Shown in pieces: positions 55,495 through 64,000 of a stretch of 64,000 bases of DNA. Made by a program: the position numbers and the translations under genes. Below the pieces are notes generated by a model. The model worked only from the letters and a program-made list of their open reading frames with translations. It did no database searches and was not told where the DNA came from. Source of the DNA: Solirubrobacteraceae bacterium (GTDB lineage: Bacteria; Actinomycetota; Thermoleophilia; Solirubrobacterales; Solirubrobacteraceae). Position 1 is the stretch's first letter; each line of letters begins with the position of its first letter. Location of the stretch: the NCBI GenBank assembly GCA_025451035.1, contig JANWLE010000069.1, positions 77,483-141,482 on the forward strand, in the 5' to 3' direction.

Positions 55495-56586
55495 TCAGAC
55501 AGCAAGCCGCAGCGCCTGCTCGTCGGCGTCCGCCGCGGCGAGCCTTGTTGCCTTTGGGCTGGCGACAACGACCCGGTTGCGGCCTGTTCGCTTGGCCTCA
55601 TAGAGGGCTTCGTCGGCGGCCTTGAACAATCCTTCATAGTCGACTGACTCTCCCAGGCCAGTGCTCAGGCCAAGCGAGATCGTGACCTGCATACCGGTCG
55701 GTCGCAGCTGCTCCATCGTGGCACGCAGCCGCTCGGCTGTTTTCTGCGCGTCGGCGGAGCCAATACCGGGCAGCACGATCAAGAACTCCTCACCCCCGAG
55801 GCGGTAGGCGAGCTCGAAAGAGCGCAGTTGCTTGCGTAGCTCGTAGGCGATGTCCTGCAGCACCGCGTCTCCGCGGTCGTGGCCACAGCTGTCGTTGATC
55901 GCCTTGAAGTTGTCGACGTCACACAGCAGCAGGCTCACTGGCTGGCCGCTGAGCCGCGCCTGATAGGTGATCTCGATGAATCTCGGTAGGAGCGTGTTGC
56001 GATTGAACAGGCCAGTGAGTGGGTCGAGGATCGCCTCGCCGCGATGATGCAGCTCGGCGTCCTCCAACGCCCATACGATCGAGACGACCCCGGCGAGCAG
56101 CGCGAGCGTAGCTATGAGCAGGACGGGATCGTGAAATGTGGAGCGGGGATCAACACCGATGGTTGAGATCAAAATCAGGACGATGGTGAGGACCAGTGCC
56201 GCCACCACCACCCGAGGACGAAAGCGTGCTGCCACCATTGCGCTCGGAAGAACCATCCAGGGAAGGGCTGGGCTCTGCGGCCCGCCGCTGAACGCAACCC
56301 CCACGCTCAAAAGCAGCAGCGTGATCACGATCGCCGCAGCGCTCACGATCTCCGGCCTCGGGCTCGTGTGGATCCGCCTTTCGACGTTCACGAAGTTGAG
56401 TGTCGCCAGGGCAAACAGGACTAGCGTCCACCAGCCGACCCAAGGAGCGGAGGCGAGCAGCGCGACACCGACTGCGATCGACCCGATCATCCTGATCACG
56501 CGGACACGATCGTTGCCGTCGATGACGCGGGCGCGATCGAGCTCCGTCGGACACAGCCACCAACCGGTCTTCTGCCTCGCGCTCAT
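55495..56586 (-). CDS. Membrane diguanylate cyclase (GGDEF)
   Basis: This enzyme would make the second messenger c-di-GMP. The 363 residues have about five hydrophobic segments in the first 175, with no recognised sensor domain, then a GGDEF domain at about 185-345. The active-site motif is GGEEF in AYRLGGEEFLIVLPG, and NTLLPRFIEI plus VSLLLCDVDNFKAINDSCGHDRGD are intact. At the product-inhibition site the usual RxxD reads RSFE. ATG 56586 was chosen; an in-frame start up to 56730 is possible. It is divergent from the large secreted protein, which may be a c-di-GMP-linked surface function. Confidence 0.9.
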   Translation of the reverse strand: MSARQKTGWWLCPTELDRARVIDGNDRVRVIRMIGSIAVGVALLASAPWVGWWTLVLFALATLNFVNVERRIHTSPRPEIVSAAAIVITLLLLSVGVAFSGGPQSPALPWMVLPSAMVAARFRPRVVVAALVLTIVLILISTIGVDPRSTFHDPVLLIATLALLAGVVSIVWALEDAELHHRGEAILDPLTGLFNRNTLLPRFIEITYQARLSGQPVSLLLCDVDNFKAINDSCGHDRGDAVLQDIAYELRKQLRSFELAYRLGGEEFLIVLPGIGSADAQKTAERLRATMEQLRPTGMQVTISLGLSTGLGESVDYEGLFKAADEALYEAKRTGRNRVVVASPKATRLAAADADEQALRLAV

Positions 56587-56996
56587 CACCGACGGTTCGG
56601 CATCCCACTTCCTGACCTTGAGGGGGTAGCGAGCTCTACGCCGCAAAATGGCAGGACTTGGGTTAGGGGCAGTCGACGTATGTTTGACCGCCAGGAGAGG
56701 GTAACCAGAGCTGGGCCTACGCTTGGTCAAGCGCCAGGCGCGGCCTGCCCATTCAAGTCAACGGTCACCTGCAATCAAATGGAATAAGGCAGGATCGAGG
56801 GGAACATCTTTTTACAGGAAGCCTGTCGTCATAGGAATGGCCAAAAAGGCCAACTGGGGCCCGTTGCTTTGGCCATCAGGGACATGCGGTTTTTCCGCAG
56901 ATATCTGCTTGCATCTACCGATGGCGCGACCTTTAGCCCTACCTAGCGTTGCCGTGAGGAGATGAGGTTTGCGACGCCAACAGGAGGAGAGTCGTC
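56587..56996 (+). promoter_or_regulatory. 410-base non-coding region with a cluster of compact hairpins
   Basis: No convincing gene is seen. The plus strand holds ACAGG-aag-CCTGT (56814-56826), TGGCC-aaaaa-GGCCA (56838-56852), TGCGG-ttttt-CCGCA (56885-56899) and the perfect palindrome GCAGATATCTGC (56897-56908). The second hairpin competes with a longer pairing of TGGCCAAA (56838-56845) with TTTGGCCA (56868-56875). GGAGGAG lies 7 bases before ATG 56997. It looks like a structured leader of the secreted protein gene. It did not match the c-di-GMP riboswitch consensus. Confidence 0.5.
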
Positions 56997-59900
56997 ATGA
57001 GGGTTGCTGCGCGGTCTTTTCTGCCGGGGGCGCTCGTCGCCGCGATGCTTGTGACTCTGGCGCCGGCTGCCGCATCTGCCGCTGAATTCGGAGTGGAACG
57101 GTTCTTCGCGGCAAATTGCGTTCAGTTGCATGAAAAATGCGCCGAAGAACCGATCACGACATATCCGACTGAACCGACTCTGAGCGAAGCCTATACGCAG
57201 GCAGCGGGGCATCCACCTTGGGGTGCGACCACCTTCAAGATCAACACCGAAGGAACCTTCCCCAACGAAGCCCCGTCCGGCATCTTGACGTCCGGGCCGG
57301 TAACTCATGTCCGCACCGACGTTGCTCCCGGCGTCAGCACCGATCCGGAGGCAGTTCCCAAGTGCTCGTTTGCCGAATTCGGCGGAGAAGCTATACCGGG
57401 CTCAGGCCTGTTCCCCGCGCCGAACTGCAAAACCGAAACCGAAATCGGCGAAAACAAGGTCGTCGTTTGGCTTGGGCCGAAACCTTCGCCGGAAGGTGGA
57501 GATCTGCCACTGCATGGAAAGGTCTACAACCTGATCCAGCCCGAAGGTCTGGCGTCGGACTTCGGCGTCGCGCTCGAACTGCCAATGGCGGTAAGCGCAG
57601 CGGCGCTTGCCAAGGGCTTCAAAGAAGCGGAAGAAAAAGGTGCGGTGCCAGGTGTCGGCGGCTTTCCCTCGCTTCCCGAACAGGCATTCCTCGAGGCCCA
57701 GCAATACTACGCGCACACCTTGATCGAAGGTCACATCGAATGGGCAGGCGACTACCACGACTACTACGAAATCAACGTCTCGCCAAAGACTCCATTGATC
57801 TCCTCGCGGCTGGTGCTCAAAGGCAACATCTTGCTGGCTGGAAAAGAAAACGGTGGGTTCATCACCAACCCAAGCCGTTGCGAAGGGCCTGGTCCTCTCA
57901 CCACCAACACCGTGTCGCTCAAAGCTGCGGCGGGTCAGGAAGGCACGAAGACCTACACGACCCCCATTGGTCCCGCGGGTTGTCTGGGAGAAGCCGGGTT
58001 CACCGCGCCGCCGTTCGAACCAAGCTTTGCTCTGATTTCTGAAACGAGTCAGTCCGACTTGCCGAACGGGCTGACAACCGAAGTGAGTTTGCCGCATGAC
58101 CCGAGCCCAACAGGAATAGATAGCTCGCAGTTGCGCAACGCAACGGTCGTGCTGCCCGAAGGCATGAGCCTAAACCCGTCGGCTGCACACGGCTTGGTCG
58201 CATGCACACCGACACAGTTCGGGATAAAAACCCGCAGAGCCGTGGAATGCCCACTCGAATCAAGGGTTGCCACGGTGCAGCTCACAGTCCCTGATCTGCC
58301 GGCGAGTGAACCGCTCGAAGGCAACGTCTATCTAGGCGGCGGGCCAACTATCGAAAACCCGCCCTACAAGCTCTATGTGGACGCAGAGTCTGCGCGCTAC
58401 GGCATCTCGACACGCCTTGAAGGAACTGTCACGCCGAATGAAGCGACAGGTCGTCTGACCACGACGTTCCTCAACAATCCCGAACAGCCGTTCACCAACA
58501 TCAAGCTCAACTTCGGCGTGCGCGGCAATGCGCTGGCGCCGATCGCAAACCCGCTCAGTTGCGGGACGGCGCTGACGGAAACGAGTTTCGTTCCATATAC
58601 AGGTGGCCCGACGAAGACGCCGACTTTTGGGTTCATAGTCGATAGCAATGGCAAAGGCGGCGCATGTGCCTCGCCGCTGCCCTTCTCGCTGAGCCAAAGC
58701 ACCGAAGATCACCCAACGACGGGTGCTGCCAACACGAACTTCACGTTCAACCTCACGCGGGCAGATGGCCAGCAGTACCTATCAAAGGTAAGCACGACCC
58801 TGCCCGAGGGGCTCGTCGGCAAGATCCCGGCTGTGCCACTGTGCGGTGAACCACAGGCAAACGCGGGCACATGCCCGGAAAGCTCGCGGATCGGCACGGC
58901 TACCGTAACCGTTGGATCCGGCAGCGCCCCCTCGCAGTTCTCAGGGCCCGTGTATCTCACCGGTCCCACAGGCAAAGACCCATACGGGATGACGGTGGTG
59001 ATCAACGCCGCGGTCGGCCCCTTCAACCTAGGGCCGGTGGTCGTGCGTGCCGGGATCGCGGTCGATCAGTTCACGACGCGCGTCACGGTGACAAGCGAGC
59101 TTCCGACGATTATCAAGGGCATCCCGACTCGCCTGAGGACCCTGAGCGTCGCCGTCAATAGGCAGGGCTTTTTGATCAACCCAACCAACTGTGGCCCGCT
59201 GGCGACGGAATCGTCGCTGACCTCCACGCTCGGGGGCACGCAGGTTGTGTCTACGCCATTCCAGGCGACCGAATGCGCCTCACTAGCGTTCGCCCCGAAG
59301 CTGACTGCGTCGACTAGTGGTAAGGCCTCGAAAGCGAACGGGACTTCGTTCAAGGTCAAGATCGGCTATCCCGTCGGGGTGCAGGCGAACGTCAAGTCTG
59401 TCTTCACGCAGCTGCCCAAGCAACTGCCCTCACGCCTGTCGACGCTCAGGCAGGCGTGCGTTGAAGCAACGTTCAACGCCAATCCCGCGGCGTGTCCCGC
59501 TGGTTCTCGTGTAGGTACGGCGACGGCGATCACCCCAGTCTTGCCGGGACAGATGACCGGGCCGGCCTATTTCGTCTCACACGGAGGGGCGGCGTTTCCT
59601 GATCTCGACCTCGTACTGAGCGGCAACGGCGTGACCGTGATCCTGGTCGGCAACACCAACATCACAAAGGGGATCACGACCACAACGTTCGCGTCGGTGC
59701 CCGATGTGCCGGTCTCTAGCTTCGAATTGAGTCTGCCGGCGGGTAAGAACTCGGCGCTGTCGGCCAACGGCAACCTGTGCGCAAAGCCGCTCTCCATGCC
59801 GACGACGATCACCGCCCAGAACGGCAAGGTCCTCAAACAGAACACGCGCATCTCGGTTCCCGGTTGCGGCGTGCAGATCATCTCCCACCGGGTGCACGGC

Positions 59901-60182
59901 CACCATGTGATCCTGAAGCTGCAGGTGCCTGCAGCCGGAAAGCTCACCGTAGGTGGCTCGTTCCTGCAGGTCCTCCACCGTACGGCGAGAGGAGCAGGGC
60001 GACTGACAGTCTCGGTCGCTCTCACCCGCTCCGGAGTCAACCTGCTCAATCTGCATGGCATCCTGCGAACACGCGTAAAGGTGCGCTTCGTCCCGAGCAA
60101 AGGCCGTGCGTCTACCGCGCAGGCGAGCGTGACGTTCAAGTCGCATGGCCGCCCACCTCGGCGTGAACCAGGACGAGGCTAG
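56997..60182 (+). CDS. Large secreted protein with three Cys-Cys repeat modules
   Basis: I do not recognise this 1061-residue exported protein as a named family. It has a signal peptide at 1-29, ending ASAA, then a unique ~350-residue region. Three copies of a degenerate ~70-residue module follow, at about 378-450, 594-660 and 797-865. Each has the form LPxGL, a Cys, then CPxxSRIGTATV and an L-x-GxVYL strand. The C-terminal ~90 residues form a basic beta-rich domain (ISHRVHGHHVILKLQVP). The cysteine pairs suggest disulfides. A cell-surface or matrix role is inferred. The next gene is a clear paralogue. Glutamate codons are almost all GAA. Confidence 0.8.
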   Translation: MRVAARSFLPGALVAAMLVTLAPAAASAAEFGVERFFAANCVQLHEKCAEEPITTYPTEPTLSEAYTQAAGHPPWGATTFKINTEGTFPNEAPSGILTSGPVTHVRTDVAPGVSTDPEAVPKCSFAEFGGEAIPGSGLFPAPNCKTETEIGENKVVVWLGPKPSPEGGDLPLHGKVYNLIQPEGLASDFGVALELPMAVSAAALAKGFKEAEEKGAVPGVGGFPSLPEQAFLEAQQYYAHTLIEGHIEWAGDYHDYYEINVSPKTPLISSRLVLKGNILLAGKENGGFITNPSRCEGPGPLTTNTVSLKAAAGQEGTKTYTTPIGPAGCLGEAGFTAPPFEPSFALISETSQSDLPNGLTTEVSLPHDPSPTGIDSSQLRNATVVLPEGMSLNPSAAHGLVACTPTQFGIKTRRAVECPLESRVATVQLTVPDLPASEPLEGNVYLGGGPTIENPPYKLYVDAESARYGISTRLEGTVTPNEATGRLTTTFLNNPEQPFTNIKLNFGVRGNALAPIANPLSCGTALTETSFVPYTGGPTKTPTFGFIVDSNGKGGACASPLPFSLSQSTEDHPTTGAANTNFTFNLTRADGQQYLSKVSTTLPEGLVGKIPAVPLCGEPQANAGTCPESSRIGTATVTVGSGSAPSQFSGPVYLTGPTGKDPYGMTVVINAAVGPFNLGPVVVRAGIAVDQFTTRVTVTSELPTIIKGIPTRLRTLSVAVNRQGFLINPTNCGPLATESSLTSTLGGTQVVSTPFQATECASLAFAPKLTASTSGKASKANGTSFKVKIGYPVGVQANVKSVFTQLPKQLPSRLSTLRQACVEATFNANPAACPAGSRVGTATAITPVLPGQMTGPAYFVSHGGAAFPDLDLVLSGNGVTVILVGNTNITKGITTTTFASVPDVPVSSFELSLPAGKNSALSANGNLCAKPLSMPTTITAQNGKVLKQNTRISVPGCGVQIISHRVHGHHVILKLQVPAAGKLTVGGSFLQVLHRTARGAGRLTVSVALTRSGVNLLNLHGILRTRVKVRFVPSKGRASTAQASVTFKSHGRPPRREPGRG
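59384..59890 (+). repeat. Duplicated segment shared with 62634-63140
   Basis: The 3' parts of the two secreted-protein genes are closely similar at DNA level as well as in protein, for example through VFTQLPKQLPSRLSTL and the MPTTITAQNGKVLKQNTRIS region. The 5' halves are far less alike. This suggests tandem duplication with later conversion or strong constraint at the C-terminal part. Confidence 0.7.
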
Positions 60183-60200
60183 CCGGCCTGGTTCGAAGCG

Positions 60201-60241
60201 ACGCGGAAACCAGCATGGCTAGGTGCGCCTGGTTTCCGCGT
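60201..60241 (+). terminator. 13-bp perfect hairpin after the first secreted-protein gene
   Basis: ACGCGGAAACCAG (60201-60213) pairs perfectly with CTGGTTTCCGCGT (60229-60241) around a 15-base loop, 18 bases past the stop. No T-tract follows. Confidence 0.75.
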
Positions 60242-60395
60242 TAGTGGTCTGCTGGAAGGCCTAAGACGCGCCAGCTGTGCGGATCTCCGTGCCGAGCGCG
60301 GGGATGCCATTCCCTCCGCTGATTAGAGCCGGCGATACGGGGTATTACGCACCCGGATGCCAGATAGCACCAAGACGGGCACGGGAGGGAGAGCT

Positions 60396-63300
60396 ATGAG
60401 GCTAGCTGCTGCGCGGCTTGCGGGCGTGTTGGCTGCGACGACGATGTTCTTGGCGAGTGGGGCCGGCTCAGTACAGGCGGCGAGTTTCGGTATCGAACGT
60501 TTCGAAGCGGGGACGTGCACTGAAGACAGCAGTGCCGCGCACTGCACGAAGGAAACGCCGGAAAAGTTCTACAGACAGGCTGCCGGCCATCCCAACGTCG
60601 GTATCACCGACATCAAGTTCAACAGCCATACAGTCATTCCGGGGGTGCTGGTCGAACCTGTCGGCAAAGTAAAAACGATACGGGTCGACATTCCGCCGGG
60701 TCTAGCCGTCAACCCCGAGGCGGTCCCCAAGTGCACCGAAGAACAGCTCGAAGCCGGCGCCTGCACCTTGGCGTCCAAGCTTGGTGTAGACGAAATCACG
60801 ACGGTGACCGAAAAAAGTCTGGGAGTCTTCGAAAGCATTACGATTCCGGCGGTCGTCTATGACATCGAACCGGGCGCCAAACACCCTGGCGTGCCCTCGT
60901 TGTTCGGGTTCGACCTAGCCCCCGGCGCACCCCCCACCTATCTTGTGGGCGGGGTGAGCTGGCACCCTGAATCAGAAGCGGAATTTGCCCCCACAAAATT
61001 TCCCACGGGTGACTTCCACGAGTTCTTCACGATCTTCGAAATACCGGAAAGCGTTCCGTTCATCGAGACCCGACTGGTCACCGAAGGCAAGGCATTCATC
61101 CCGACCCAGGGGACAGGACCGTTCGTCACGATGCCGAGCTCGTGCACCGAAAAACCCAACCCGATTTCGAGCGCTGTTGTCGAATCATGGAACAAAGAAA
61201 GGGATGAGAAGGAGTTCGAAGCGCCTTTCGGGGCCAATGGCTGCGACAAAGTTCCCTTCGAACCAAGCGTCAAGGTGGAGCCTGCCACGGCGCAGTCTGA
61301 TCGTACGGACGGGGCAACCGTCAAAGTGGAAGTGCCGCAAAACGCCGATCCGGAAGGGATCAACTCCTCCACGCTGAAGGACGCCCACGTCACCCTGCCG
61401 GAAGGCATGACGCTCAACCCCTCGGTGGTCAACGGGCTGGAAACATGCACCGACGCCCAGTTCGGCAAGGGAACGGCTGCTCCCGTCACCTGCCCCGCCG
61501 GCTCGCAGATCGGAACGGTGACGATCGAAACCCCCGACCTGCCAGCCAAGTCGCTCGTCGGCAACGTCTATGCGGGGTCGCCGCTAAGCACCAACCCCGA
61601 ATCGGGCCAGGAGTACAGGATCTTCATCGCTGTCGAGTCAGTGCACTACGGAGTCACCATACGACTGCTCGGAATGGTGAACGCCAGCACCGCCACGGGA
61701 CGGCTCACCACCGCGGTACTCGAAAATCCACCGATTCCCTTCAGTGACTTCAGCGTCACGCTCGATGGCCCGCACGTGCCGCTCGCCAATCCGCTCAGCT
61801 GTGGGGCGGCGACCCCAGCTGGGATATTCGCCCCCTACAGCCAGAACCCGCCCTCCGAGTCCATCGCGGGAACGCCGTTCACCGTCGATTTCGACGGCAA
61901 AGGCGGTGTCTGCGCCTCGCCGTTGCCGTTCGCGCTCGCCCAGAGCACCGCGACTGCGCCGACGACGGGCGGCTCGACCACGAGCTTCACTTTCACCCTG
62001 ACACGCGGTGACGGCAACCAATACCTCTCTAAGGTGAGCGCCACGCTGCCGCCGGGCCTTGTCGGCAAGGTTCCGTCGGTCACGCTCTGCGGTGAAGCGC
62101 AGGCCAATGCCGGCACCTGTCCGGCCGCTAGCCAGATCGGTGCCGTCAACGTGGCTCTTGGCGCGGGGAGCAGTCCGCTCAAGCTCTCCGGCACGGCGTA
62201 TCTGACCGGTCCCTACGCGGGCGCCCCTTACGGTCTCTCGGTCGTGGTGAACGCCGAAAAAGTCGGCCCGTTCAACTATGGCGTGATCGTCACGCGGGCG
62301 ACGATCAACATCGATCCGCACACCGCGCGTCTGATCGTCGCCAGCACCCTGCCCACGATCGTCGGTGGGGCGCCGCTGCGCCTGAAAGCTCTGAGCGTGG
62401 ATACGAACAGGCCCAACTTCATGCTCAACCCCACTAACTGCGGCGTGCTTGCCAGCGACACGCTACTGACGTCCACCTTCAACTCAACGCAAGCCGTCTC
62501 AAGCCCCTTCCAGGCGACAGGCTGCTCAGCCCTCGGCTTCAGCCCGAAGTTCACGGTCTCGACGAACGCGAAAGCCACCAAAGTCAACGGCACGAGCCTG
62601 ACGGTCAAGGTGGGCTATCCAGGCGGCATGCAAGCGAACATCAAGTCCGTCTTCACCCAACTGCCCAAGCAGTTGCCCTCGCGCCTGAGCACGCTCAGCA
62701 AGGCATGCACGGCGGCGGTCTTCGACGCCAATCCAGGCGCCTGTCCGGCCGAATCGAGGGTCGGCACCGTGACCACGACGACCCCAGTTCTGCCCGGGAA
62801 GCTGAGCGGCCCCGCTTACTTCGTCTCGCACGGTGGGGCGGCGTTCCCTGACCTGGACATCGTCCTCACGGGCGCCAACGGCGTGACCGTGATCCTTGTC
62901 GGCAACACCAACATCGCGAACGGGATCACCACCTCGGACTTCGCCTCCATACCCGACGTGCCGGTCTCAAGCTTCGAACTGAACCTGCCTGCCGGCAAGT
63001 ATTCAGCGCTGTCCGCCAACGGAAATCTGTGCACGAAACCGTTGATCATGCCGACCACGATCACCGCCCAGAACGGCAAGGTCCTAAAGCAGAACACCCG
63101 CATCTCTGTGGTGGGCTGTGGTGTGATCATCCTCTCCCATCGCGTCAGGCACCGTCACGTTCTGCTGAAGCTGCAGGTTCCGGGGTCAGGGCGCATCGTC
63201 GCCGGTGGCAGGGATCTCAAGACAGTTCGTAGACCCGTCAAAGGCGGCCGCGTGAGCATTTCCCTCGCGCTCAGCCGCCGCGGCCGGCAGGCGCTTGCAC

Positions 63301-63404
63301 GTGCTCACCGGCACCACCACCATCTCAGCGTGAGGGTGCGCGTGCGTTTTCTCCCCGGTAAAGGGCATGGGTCGGCTGCTGGTGTGACGGTTGTGTTCAG
63401 GTAG
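60396..63404 (+). CDS. Large secreted protein, paralogue of the preceding gene
   Basis: This 1002-residue exported protein has the same layout as its neighbour: signal peptide 1-28 (ending VQA, then ASFGIERFEAGTC), an N-terminal region, three Cys-Cys modules at about 326-396, 542-608 and 747-812, and a basic beta-rich C-terminal domain. In the second module the motif reads LCGEAQANAGTCPAASQIG. ATG 60396 was chosen because it begins the signal peptide and has GGGAGGGAG just upstream; an earlier in-frame ATG at 60357 adds only polar residues. A strong hairpin before it implies its own promoter in 60242-60395. Function is unknown. Confidence 0.8.
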   Translation: MRLAAARLAGVLAATTMFLASGAGSVQAASFGIERFEAGTCTEDSSAAHCTKETPEKFYRQAAGHPNVGITDIKFNSHTVIPGVLVEPVGKVKTIRVDIPPGLAVNPEAVPKCTEEQLEAGACTLASKLGVDEITTVTEKSLGVFESITIPAVVYDIEPGAKHPGVPSLFGFDLAPGAPPTYLVGGVSWHPESEAEFAPTKFPTGDFHEFFTIFEIPESVPFIETRLVTEGKAFIPTQGTGPFVTMPSSCTEKPNPISSAVVESWNKERDEKEFEAPFGANGCDKVPFEPSVKVEPATAQSDRTDGATVKVEVPQNADPEGINSSTLKDAHVTLPEGMTLNPSVVNGLETCTDAQFGKGTAAPVTCPAGSQIGTVTIETPDLPAKSLVGNVYAGSPLSTNPESGQEYRIFIAVESVHYGVTIRLLGMVNASTATGRLTTAVLENPPIPFSDFSVTLDGPHVPLANPLSCGAATPAGIFAPYSQNPPSESIAGTPFTVDFDGKGGVCASPLPFALAQSTATAPTTGGSTTSFTFTLTRGDGNQYLSKVSATLPPGLVGKVPSVTLCGEAQANAGTCPAASQIGAVNVALGAGSSPLKLSGTAYLTGPYAGAPYGLSVVVNAEKVGPFNYGVIVTRATINIDPHTARLIVASTLPTIVGGAPLRLKALSVDTNRPNFMLNPTNCGVLASDTLLTSTFNSTQAVSSPFQATGCSALGFSPKFTVSTNAKATKVNGTSLTVKVGYPGGMQANIKSVFTQLPKQLPSRLSTLSKACTAAVFDANPGACPAESRVGTVTTTTPVLPGKLSGPAYFVSHGGAAFPDLDIVLTGANGVTVILVGNTNIANGITTSDFASIPDVPVSSFELNLPAGKYSALSANGNLCTKPLIMPTTITAQNGKVLKQNTRISVVGCGVIILSHRVRHRHVLLKLQVPGSGRIVAGGRDLKTVRRPVKGGRVSISLALSRRGRQALARAHRHHHHLSVRVRVRFLPGKGHGSAAGVTVVFR

Positions 63405-63479: not shown

Positions 63480-63485
63480 TAGATT
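63480..63485 (+). promoter_or_regulatory. Leaderless-type -10 element
   Basis: TAGATT, then 7 bases (gcgggga), then GTG 63493. Confidence 0.45.
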
Positions 63486-63492
63486 GCGGGGA

Positions 63493-64000
63493 GTGGAGAT
63501 TGTGTCCCAGGAGCGGGGGGCCGTACCTGACGCCGAAGCGGTGCTCGGCGGCATCCGGCGGCTGAGCCTGCTCGCCGATCACGCGGAGGATCCCGAGTCG
63601 ATCTTCAAGGCGCTTGCGGGCGAGCTGTTGTCGATGCTTGAGACCGATGAGGTTCAGGTCCACCACATCTCGCCGGCCGGCGCAGACCCGGAGCTCGTGA
63701 TCGTCTACATGTTCGACGGCGAGGGCAGTCTCACCTACCGCCTGCCACGCTCTGAGCGCGCCCCCGGCGTGAGCTGGGTGGCGAACACCGGCCGGAGCTT
63801 CTTGGCGGCCAATCCACGCGAGCTCGAGGCGAGCCTGCCGCGCCTTGCGATCATGGGCGGCGTCCGCTCGGCCGCGCTGCTCCCGCTCACGGTCAGCGGC
63901 GAGGTGCGCGTGGTGGTCGTGCTCGTACGCCACGACGGGGAGGTCTTTGACGACGCCGCCATAGGGCTCGCGGGCACCCTTGTCGGCCAAGCCGCCACCG
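63493..64000 (+). CDS. GAF-domain protein, N-terminal part (cut by window edge)
   Basis: The frame from GTG 63493 stays open to the last base. The 169 residues visible contain a GAF sensor domain (about 15-169): IRRLSLLADHAEDPESIFKAL, then LLSMLETDEVQVHHIS, APGVSWVANTGRSFLA and SAALLPLTVSGEVRVVVVLVRH. Such domains usually precede an output part (phosphatase, GGDEF/EAL or kinase), which is beyond the window. The start is set by TAGATT-N7-GTG. Good codon use and the domain match support the gene. Confidence 0.75.
   Translation, partial: MEIVSQERGAVPDAEAVLGGIRRLSLLADHAEDPESIFKALAGELLSMLETDEVQVHHISPAGADPELVIVYMFDGEGSLTYRLPRSERAPGVSWVANTGRSFLAANPRELEASLPRLAIMGGVRSAALLPLTVSGEVRVVVVLVRHDGEVFDDAAIGLAGTLVGQAAT

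What the first reader, a model, noticed from the sequence alone, without database searches (positions are those of the whole stretch)
56997..63404. Tandem giant secreted paralogues built from an unnamed Cys-Cys module
Both proteins contain three copies of a ~70-residue module with the core CPxxS(R/Q)(I/V)G, an upstream Cys and a following LxGxxYL strand, then a shared basic beta-rich end. I recognise no catalytic motif. The module looks like an undescribed extracellular domain, perhaps forming a surface layer or adhesin. The pair lies between two signalling genes (GGDEF and GAF).
Basis: partly seen in the sequence, partly recalled or inferred. Interest (0 to 1): 0.62.

Follow-up and report, generated by a model that had tools for sequence, protein, structure and literature searches.

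The report
Uncatalogued family of chained surface proteins
Two neighbouring genes of an uncultured soil bacterium make long secreted proteins, each a chain of four large immunoglobulin-like blocks ending in a strongly positively charged domain; they belong to a large protein family, absent from the databases searched, that is found almost only in one order of actinobacteria and probably forms adhesive or structural fibres on the cell surface.

Summary
The two genes are real: secreted, 49% identical end to end, matching nothing in Pfam, NCBIfam, PHROGs or PDB sequences. AlphaFold2 is confident (unit pLDDT 93); the unit is a large Ig/cupredoxin-like beta-sandwich nearest YcnI and BslA, then Gram-positive Ig adhesins.

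The multi-unit family is confined, as far as sampled, to the window's own order (Solirubrobacterales), from 1-2 to about 30 copies per genome. Small-genome relatives chain the same alternating pair into frames of 4,600-7,200 residues. In 40 loci a member lies next to a secreted beta-propeller gene, in 30 of them through an ATGA/GTGA overlap. Both proteins end strongly positive, and some share a homologous C-terminal domain. The window's clade lacks the propeller but keeps a GAF-GGDEF gene downstream.

Best explanation: non-covalently wall-anchored Ig-chain surface proteins (adhesin or matrix scaffold), basic C-terminus at the wall and variable N-terminal unit outward. Family, architecture, pairing and charge are shown; location and adhesion are inferred.

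The parts
56997..60182 (+). p1, secreted four-unit protein, 1061 aa
   Evidence: ORF with RBS AGGAGGAGAG just upstream and Sec-type signal peptide; profile hits U1-U4 and CTD
60357..63404 (+). p2, secreted four-unit protein, 1015 aa as annotated; likely true start 60396 (1002 aa)
57201..58004 (+). p1 unit U1 (divergent odd-type unit)
   Evidence: profile boundaries
58011..58682 (+). p1 unit U2 (even type)
58668..59297 (+). p1 unit U3 (odd type)
59283..59882 (+). p1 unit U4 (even type)
59871..60140 (+). p1 basic C-terminal domain (CTD)
   Evidence: CTD profile 1.7e-28, residues 959-1048
60579..61262 (+). p2 unit U1
61254..61928 (+). p2 unit U2
61914..62546 (+). p2 unit U3; 61908-62546 folded alone, pLDDT 92.7
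62532..63131 (+). p2 unit U4, the most conserved unit of the family
63123..63401 (+). p2 basic CTD, Ig-like, net charge about +20
63484..64000 (+). start of a 343-aa GAF-GGDEF gene, syntenic downstream neighbour (continues beyond the window); context, not part of the proteins
55495..56730 (-). divergent membrane GGDEF gene upstream; context, matches the genes next to relatives only through its GGDEF domain

Best explanation
p1 and p2 are cell-surface proteins built as chains of four large disulphide-stabilised Ig-like sandwiches. They are exported by the Sec route and held on the wall of this Gram-positive-type cell not by a sortase but by electrostatic binding of the strongly basic C-terminal domain to anionic wall polymers. 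The conserved U3-U4 part forms the base and the fast-varying, acidic N-terminal unit(s) face outward, making contacts with soil surfaces, other cells or matrix. In many relatives the same protein is co-translated with a secreted beta-propeller protein that carries the same kind of anchor, so the ancestral unit of function was probably a two-protein surface assembly; the window's clade works without the propeller. Shown by computation: the family, the unit structure, the charge polarity, the variability gradient, the pairing, and the absence of sortase from the held genome. Inferred: surface location, the electrostatic anchor, disulphide pairing, and adhesion or scaffolding.
For: Confident model of a chain of Ig-like sandwiches (pLDDT 87.8 for mature p2, 92.7 for U3); nearest folds include BslA and many Gram-positive Ig adhesins and pilins. 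Paired Cys conserved in 45 of 45. Charge rises from N- to C-terminus in every relative; C-terminal net charge positive in 45 of 45; last 60 residues +14 in family, +18.5 in partner propellers, -1 in 83 other secreted-like proteins of the same loci. The CTD is homologous to the C-terminus of partner propellers (E 5.5e-18 and others), as expected of an anchor shared by partners. Identity rises U1 0.32, U2 0.42, U3 0.50, U4 0.59. No LPxTG, no sortase gene in the genome while the control rings in Gram-positives. Long alternating chains of the same units in relatives fit a fibre.
Against: No experiment, no known ligand, no direct evidence of surface location. A basic C-terminus could instead bind nucleic acid or acidic polysaccharide of the matrix. 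Folds nearest to U3 (YcnI, BslA) are not adhesins in the strict sense, and Z of 7-9 is only a common arrangement. The link to c-di-GMP is adjacency only.
Confidence: 0.55

Rival explanations
1. Matrix or coat protein: the proteins are released and assemble on extracellular polymer or at interfaces, like the BslA coat of Bacillus biofilms; the basic end binds extracellular DNA or acidic polysaccharide rather than the cell wall.
For: BslA is the second-best fold (Z 8.4, rmsd 2.5, 113 residues); no covalent anchor; a GAF-GGDEF gene lies next door in eleven loci including the window.
Against: BslA is one domain of ~130 residues with a hydrophobic cap, not a chain; no test of a cap was made. No sequence relation.
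Confidence: 0.2
2. S-layer: the proteins self-assemble into the cell's regular outer protein lattice, attached through the basic CTD.
For: Large secreted beta-rich proteins, present in all 18 same-genus genomes looked at. The Deinococcus HPI S-layer is among weak matches of the CTD (Z 7.6).
Against: Up to about 30 divergent copies per genome, a variable N-terminal unit, no SLH or CWB2 Pfam match; a regulator beside many copies suggests conditional use rather than a permanent coat.
Confidence: 0.12
3. Capture of nutrients: each propeller/Ig-chain pair binds one polymeric substrate at the surface, and the TetR-type gene beside it senses it, loosely like the many substrate-specific surface pairs of Bacteroidetes.
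For: Many divergent copies with a fixed pair and a neighbouring TetR-type regulator.
Against: No transporter or hydrolase recurs among the neighbours, and the window's pair has neither propeller nor TetR gene.
Confidence: 0.08
4. Metal binding: the units are tandem YcnI-like copper-binding domains.
For: Highest structural score (Z 9.4, rmsd 2.5, 117 residues).
Against: No DUF1775 profile match. The His/Glu/Trp monohistidine-brace ligands (PMC8424229) have no conserved counterpart: apart from one His near the N-terminus and one His of U4, no His, and no Trp at all, is conserved above 80%.
Confidence: 0.02

Closest known systems
YcnI / DUF1775 copper-binding domain (Bacillus subtilis; PDB 7me6, 8um6)
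   Same: Best structural match of one unit: Z 9.4, rmsd 2.5 over 117 residues; secreted beta-sandwich
   Different: No DUF1775 profile match; copper ligands not conserved; unit ~80 residues longer with two Cys pairs; in tandem
BslA, biofilm hydrophobin (PDB 4bhu)
   Same: Second fold match, Z 8.4, rmsd 2.5 over 113 residues; secreted, non-covalent
   Different: Single small domain with hydrophobic cap; no Cys-pair pattern; no basic C-terminal domain; no sequence relation
Gram-positive Ig-like adhesins and pilins (CNA, Cnm, SpaD, antigen I/II C-terminal domains, SSA1632/1633)
   Same: Chains of large Ig-like sandwiches on the surface; Z about 6-8 to one unit
   Different: Those are sortase-anchored (LPxTG) as a rule and use isopeptide bonds (general knowledge); here no LPxTG, no sortase in the genome, Cys pairs instead
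Long repeat adhesins (SiiE, RTX-type; PDB 2yn3, 6xi3)
   Same: Long chains of beta-sandwich repeats; the CTD matches one SiiE Ig domain at Z 8.3; giant relatives reach 7,223 aa
   Different: Those are type-I-secreted Gram-negative proteins with calcium sites (general knowledge); here Sec signal peptides and a ~430-residue alternating super-repeat
NHL/PD40 beta-propeller surface proteins
   Same: The partner protein of the relatives is of this general kind (Pfam NHL, fn3, PD40)
   Different: Co-translated with an Ig-chain protein and, in several genera, ending in the same CTD; no such pair turned up in the paper searches made here

Membership tests
Any Pfam, NCBIfam or PHROG family | Profile match above the curated cut-off | tested here: not met
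   nothing above cut-off; best stray match He_PIG 0.011 in 2 of 42 units
YcnI / DUF1775 | DUF1775 profile match | tested here: not met
   no match in p1, p2, 22 relatives, 42 units
YcnI / DUF1775 | His, Glu, Trp copper ligands | tested here: not met
   ligand set from PMC8424229; no conserved Trp, and conserved His only near the N-terminus and in U4
YcnI / DUF1775 | Fold (cupredoxin-like sandwich) | tested here: met
   Z 9.4, rmsd 2.5, 117 residues; fold only
BslA hydrophobin | Fold | tested here: met
   Z 8.4, rmsd 2.5, 113 residues
BslA hydrophobin | Surface-exposed hydrophobic cap | not tested
   model coordinates were not at hand
Sortase-anchored (LPxTG) adhesins | LPxTG, membrane helix and basic tail | tested here: not met
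   no LPxTG, no C-terminal hydrophobic helix
Sortase-anchored (LPxTG) adhesins | Sortase in the genome | tested here: not met
   PF04203 absent from G000, 94% complete
S-layer proteins | Known wall-binding domain (SLH, CWB2) | tested here: not met
   no Pfam match; S-layers without these domains exist
S-layer proteins | Two-dimensional lattice, high abundance | not testable with these tools
   needs microscopy or proteomics
DUF11 proteins (relatives with the propeller partner only) | DUF11 match above cut-off in the N-terminal extension | tested here: inconclusive
   L056 relative: 21.0 bits against cut-off 24.6, E 4.4e-4

The most novel reading that the evidence does not exclude
A two-protein surface system of the order Solirubrobacterales: a secreted beta-propeller protein and an Ig-chain protein of a new domain family, translationally coupled and sharing one cationic anchor type, multiplied to some 30 divergent copies per genome, some with their own TetR-type regulator, as a switchable repertoire of cell surfaces; the window's pair is a propeller-free branch.
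Probability: 0.35. Interest if true: 0.75.

Novelty: new variant of a known kind. Interest (0 to 1): 0.58.

Why it matters
[quoted passage not shown] A domain family with no Pfam entry that takes up tens of kilobases in some of these genomes, with a fixed partner and a shared C-terminal anchor, would be a main part of their cell surface, and perhaps a new non-sortase way of fixing proteins to a Gram-positive wall.

Tried and rejected
Phage or plasmid origin: tblastn of p2 found nothing in 50,697 phage and 72,556 plasmid records, and the family alignment found no relative in IMG/VR. Weak PDB sequence hits (photosystem I subunit, EGFR, complement C5, CoxG) were judged chance (E 0.03-5). Foldseek hits of the whole chain (mastigoneme filament, transglutaminase, alphavirus E1/E2) reflect Ig-like sandwiches in a row, with TM-scores near 0.1. 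Recent tandem duplication of p1 and p2 was rejected: in the tree p1 groups with L041 and L045 and p2 with L034. Short secreted proteins with a C..CP motif near some relatives (for example L043:3936-4955) were considered as one-unit members but do not match the unit profile. Orthology of the upstream GGDEF gene with the genes next to relatives was rejected: only its GGDEF domain matches. A viral-library fold search gave no useful match.
Full report
WHAT IS THERE. Two tandem genes on the + strand, p1 (56997-60182, 1061 aa) and p2 (60357-63404, 1015 aa as annotated), are 49% identical from end to end. p1 has a good ribosome-binding site; p2's best site precedes the ATG at 60396, so p2 is probably 1002 aa. 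Both begin with Sec-type signal peptides; neither has LPxTG or a C-terminal membrane helix. Each has 18 cysteines in regular pairs.

TRUE REPEAT. Alignment of 45 relatives (A3) and profile comparison of its segments show four homologous units of about 210 residues: U1-U2 98.5%, U1-U3 98.8%, U2-U4 99.3%, U3-U4 96.9%, U1-U4 87.4% probability; the C-terminal domain (CTD) is unrelated to them by sequence. U1 pairs best with U3 and U2 with U4, so the protein is two ~430-residue super-repeats plus CTD. In four genomes of another family of the order (L118-L121), single frames reported as 4,643 to 7,223 aa chain the same units; in the parts fetched, 15-22 units alternate between the U2 and U3 types, two of the four chains closing with a U4-like unit, and all end in a Lys-rich terminus.

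FOLD. AlphaFold2 with 45 rows gives pLDDT 87.8, pTM 0.74 for mature p2 and 92.7, 0.87 for U3 alone. U3 is an Ig/cupredoxin-like sandwich: YcnI Z 9.4 (2.5 A, 117 residues), BslA Z 8.4 (2.5 A, 113), then Gram-positive Ig adhesins and pilins at Z about 6-8. Foldseek alone gave no match under E 0.001 for the unit. The CTD is a separate small Ig-like sandwich (Z about 8 to SiiE, GbpA and others). These are shared folds; they do not assign function.

NOT IN THE DATABASES SEARCHED. No Pfam, NCBIfam or PHROG family matches p1 or p2. None credible matches 22 relatives or 42 units spread over the order. No PDB sequence relative was found. Eight paper searches (open-access papers only) turned up no description.

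DISTRIBUTION. With the full-length profile, 55 of 299 genomes of the class match, all in the window's own order, and 5 of 396 drawn from the phylum, again all own order. The single-unit profile adds only weak matches of single-unit secreted proteins in one family outside the class (E 1e-7 to 1e-5). Named relatives are nearly all Solirubrobacterales or Solirubrobacteraceae MAGs. Matches per genome in the genus run from 3 to about 30 (counts are match pieces, and only some candidates are scored). The window's genome has just these two genes. In ten other genomes of the order the counts are 1 to 22.

PARTNER GENE. In 40 of the loci read, a family gene directly follows a gene for a secreted beta-propeller protein (NHL, FN3, PD40 domains where Pfam sees any). 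In 30 of the 40 the stop and start overlap as ATGA or GTGA, against 77 of 434 other same-strand neighbours (odds ratio 13.9, Fisher p 1.5e-13; paralogues are not independent, so p is optimistic). In the genus, numbers of family and propeller matches rise together (Spearman 0.75). In several other genera, in two families of the order, the propeller protein ends in a domain homologous to the family's CTD (E 5.5e-18, 9.1e-18, 1.2e-15, 2.4e-13, 4.4e-13, 5.3e-13, 7.6e-7). In the large expansions both proteins end instead in Lys/Arg-rich tails. A TetR-type regulator, in one scanned case with two TetR_N stretches, lies beside many of the expanded loci.

CHARGE AND VARIABILITY. Median net charge runs -13 (N-terminus and U1), -11 (U2), 0 (U3), +6 (U4), +16 (after the last Cys), the last positive in 45 of 45. 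The last 60 residues carry +14 (family) and +18.5 (propellers), but -1 in 83 other secreted-like proteins of the same loci; at least +10 in 92%, 97% and 2%. Charge is kept while sequence is not: a domain, a tail, or a Lys-rich end. Sequence identity rises from U1 (0.32) to U4 (0.59).

THE WINDOW'S BRANCH. A tree of 78 members places p1 with L041 and L045 (100) and p2 with L034 (98): two old paralogue lines, not a recent duplication. Both lie in a strongly supported clade of 24 rows (100) with no propeller next to any member. Propeller-paired members lie on both sides of the midpoint root, so pairing may be ancestral and lost here; the root is for drawing only, so this is tentative. The window's genome has no propeller match. 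Downstream of p2 lie a 343-aa GAF-GGDEF protein, aconitase and a peptidase resembling M42 aminopeptidases (the last two named from sequence resemblance, not scanned), with counterparts of 62-79% identity in the same order in relatives; the family gene sits directly upstream of the GAF-GGDEF gene in ten further loci. The upstream GGDEF gene is not part of that synteny.

MECHANISM. Most likely: surface-exposed Ig chains, exported by Sec, held on the wall by the basic C-terminus through anionic polymers (no sortase in the genome), conserved base and variable tip, used for attachment or as scaffold; in relatives, together with a co-translated propeller. The C-terminus being the inner end is inferred from charge, conservation and sharing of the CTD with the partner. 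Adhesion is inferred from architecture only.

LIMITS. MAG assemblies; ORF calls in high-GC DNA by a simple script; match counts are not gene counts; no collection of all proteins or of AlphaFold DB could be searched; disulphide pairing is inferred from conservation, not measured.

Noticed in passing
L118-L121 (G024, G027, G021, G030): Genomes of only about 2.4-2.6 Mb carry single open frames of 4,643-7,223 aa made almost wholly of the same two alternating ~215-residue units, an unusual investment for such a small genome.
   Followed up: partly
L056-L090, mostly one MAG (CRAIB_MAG44, G016): About 30 propeller/Ig-chain pairs scattered over the genome, several directly followed by a TetR-type gene of 320-370 aa with only 5-16 bases between; some members may be broken, since matches read through a stop codon.
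   Followed up: partly
L086: A contig titled Phenylobacterium (Pseudomonadota) carries a typical propeller/Ig-chain pair that nests inside the Solirubrobacteraceae in the tree; the record name is probably wrong.
   Followed up: no
L167, L168 (G475, G417; same phylum, other class): Small secreted proteins (about 220-290 aa) with one weakly matching unit (E about 1e-7), possibly the single-domain stock from which the chain family grew.
   Followed up: no
window 60183-60356: The gap between p1 and p2 holds the inverted repeat GGAAACCAG...CTGGTTTCC without a T run; p1 and p2 may be separate transcripts.
   Followed up: no
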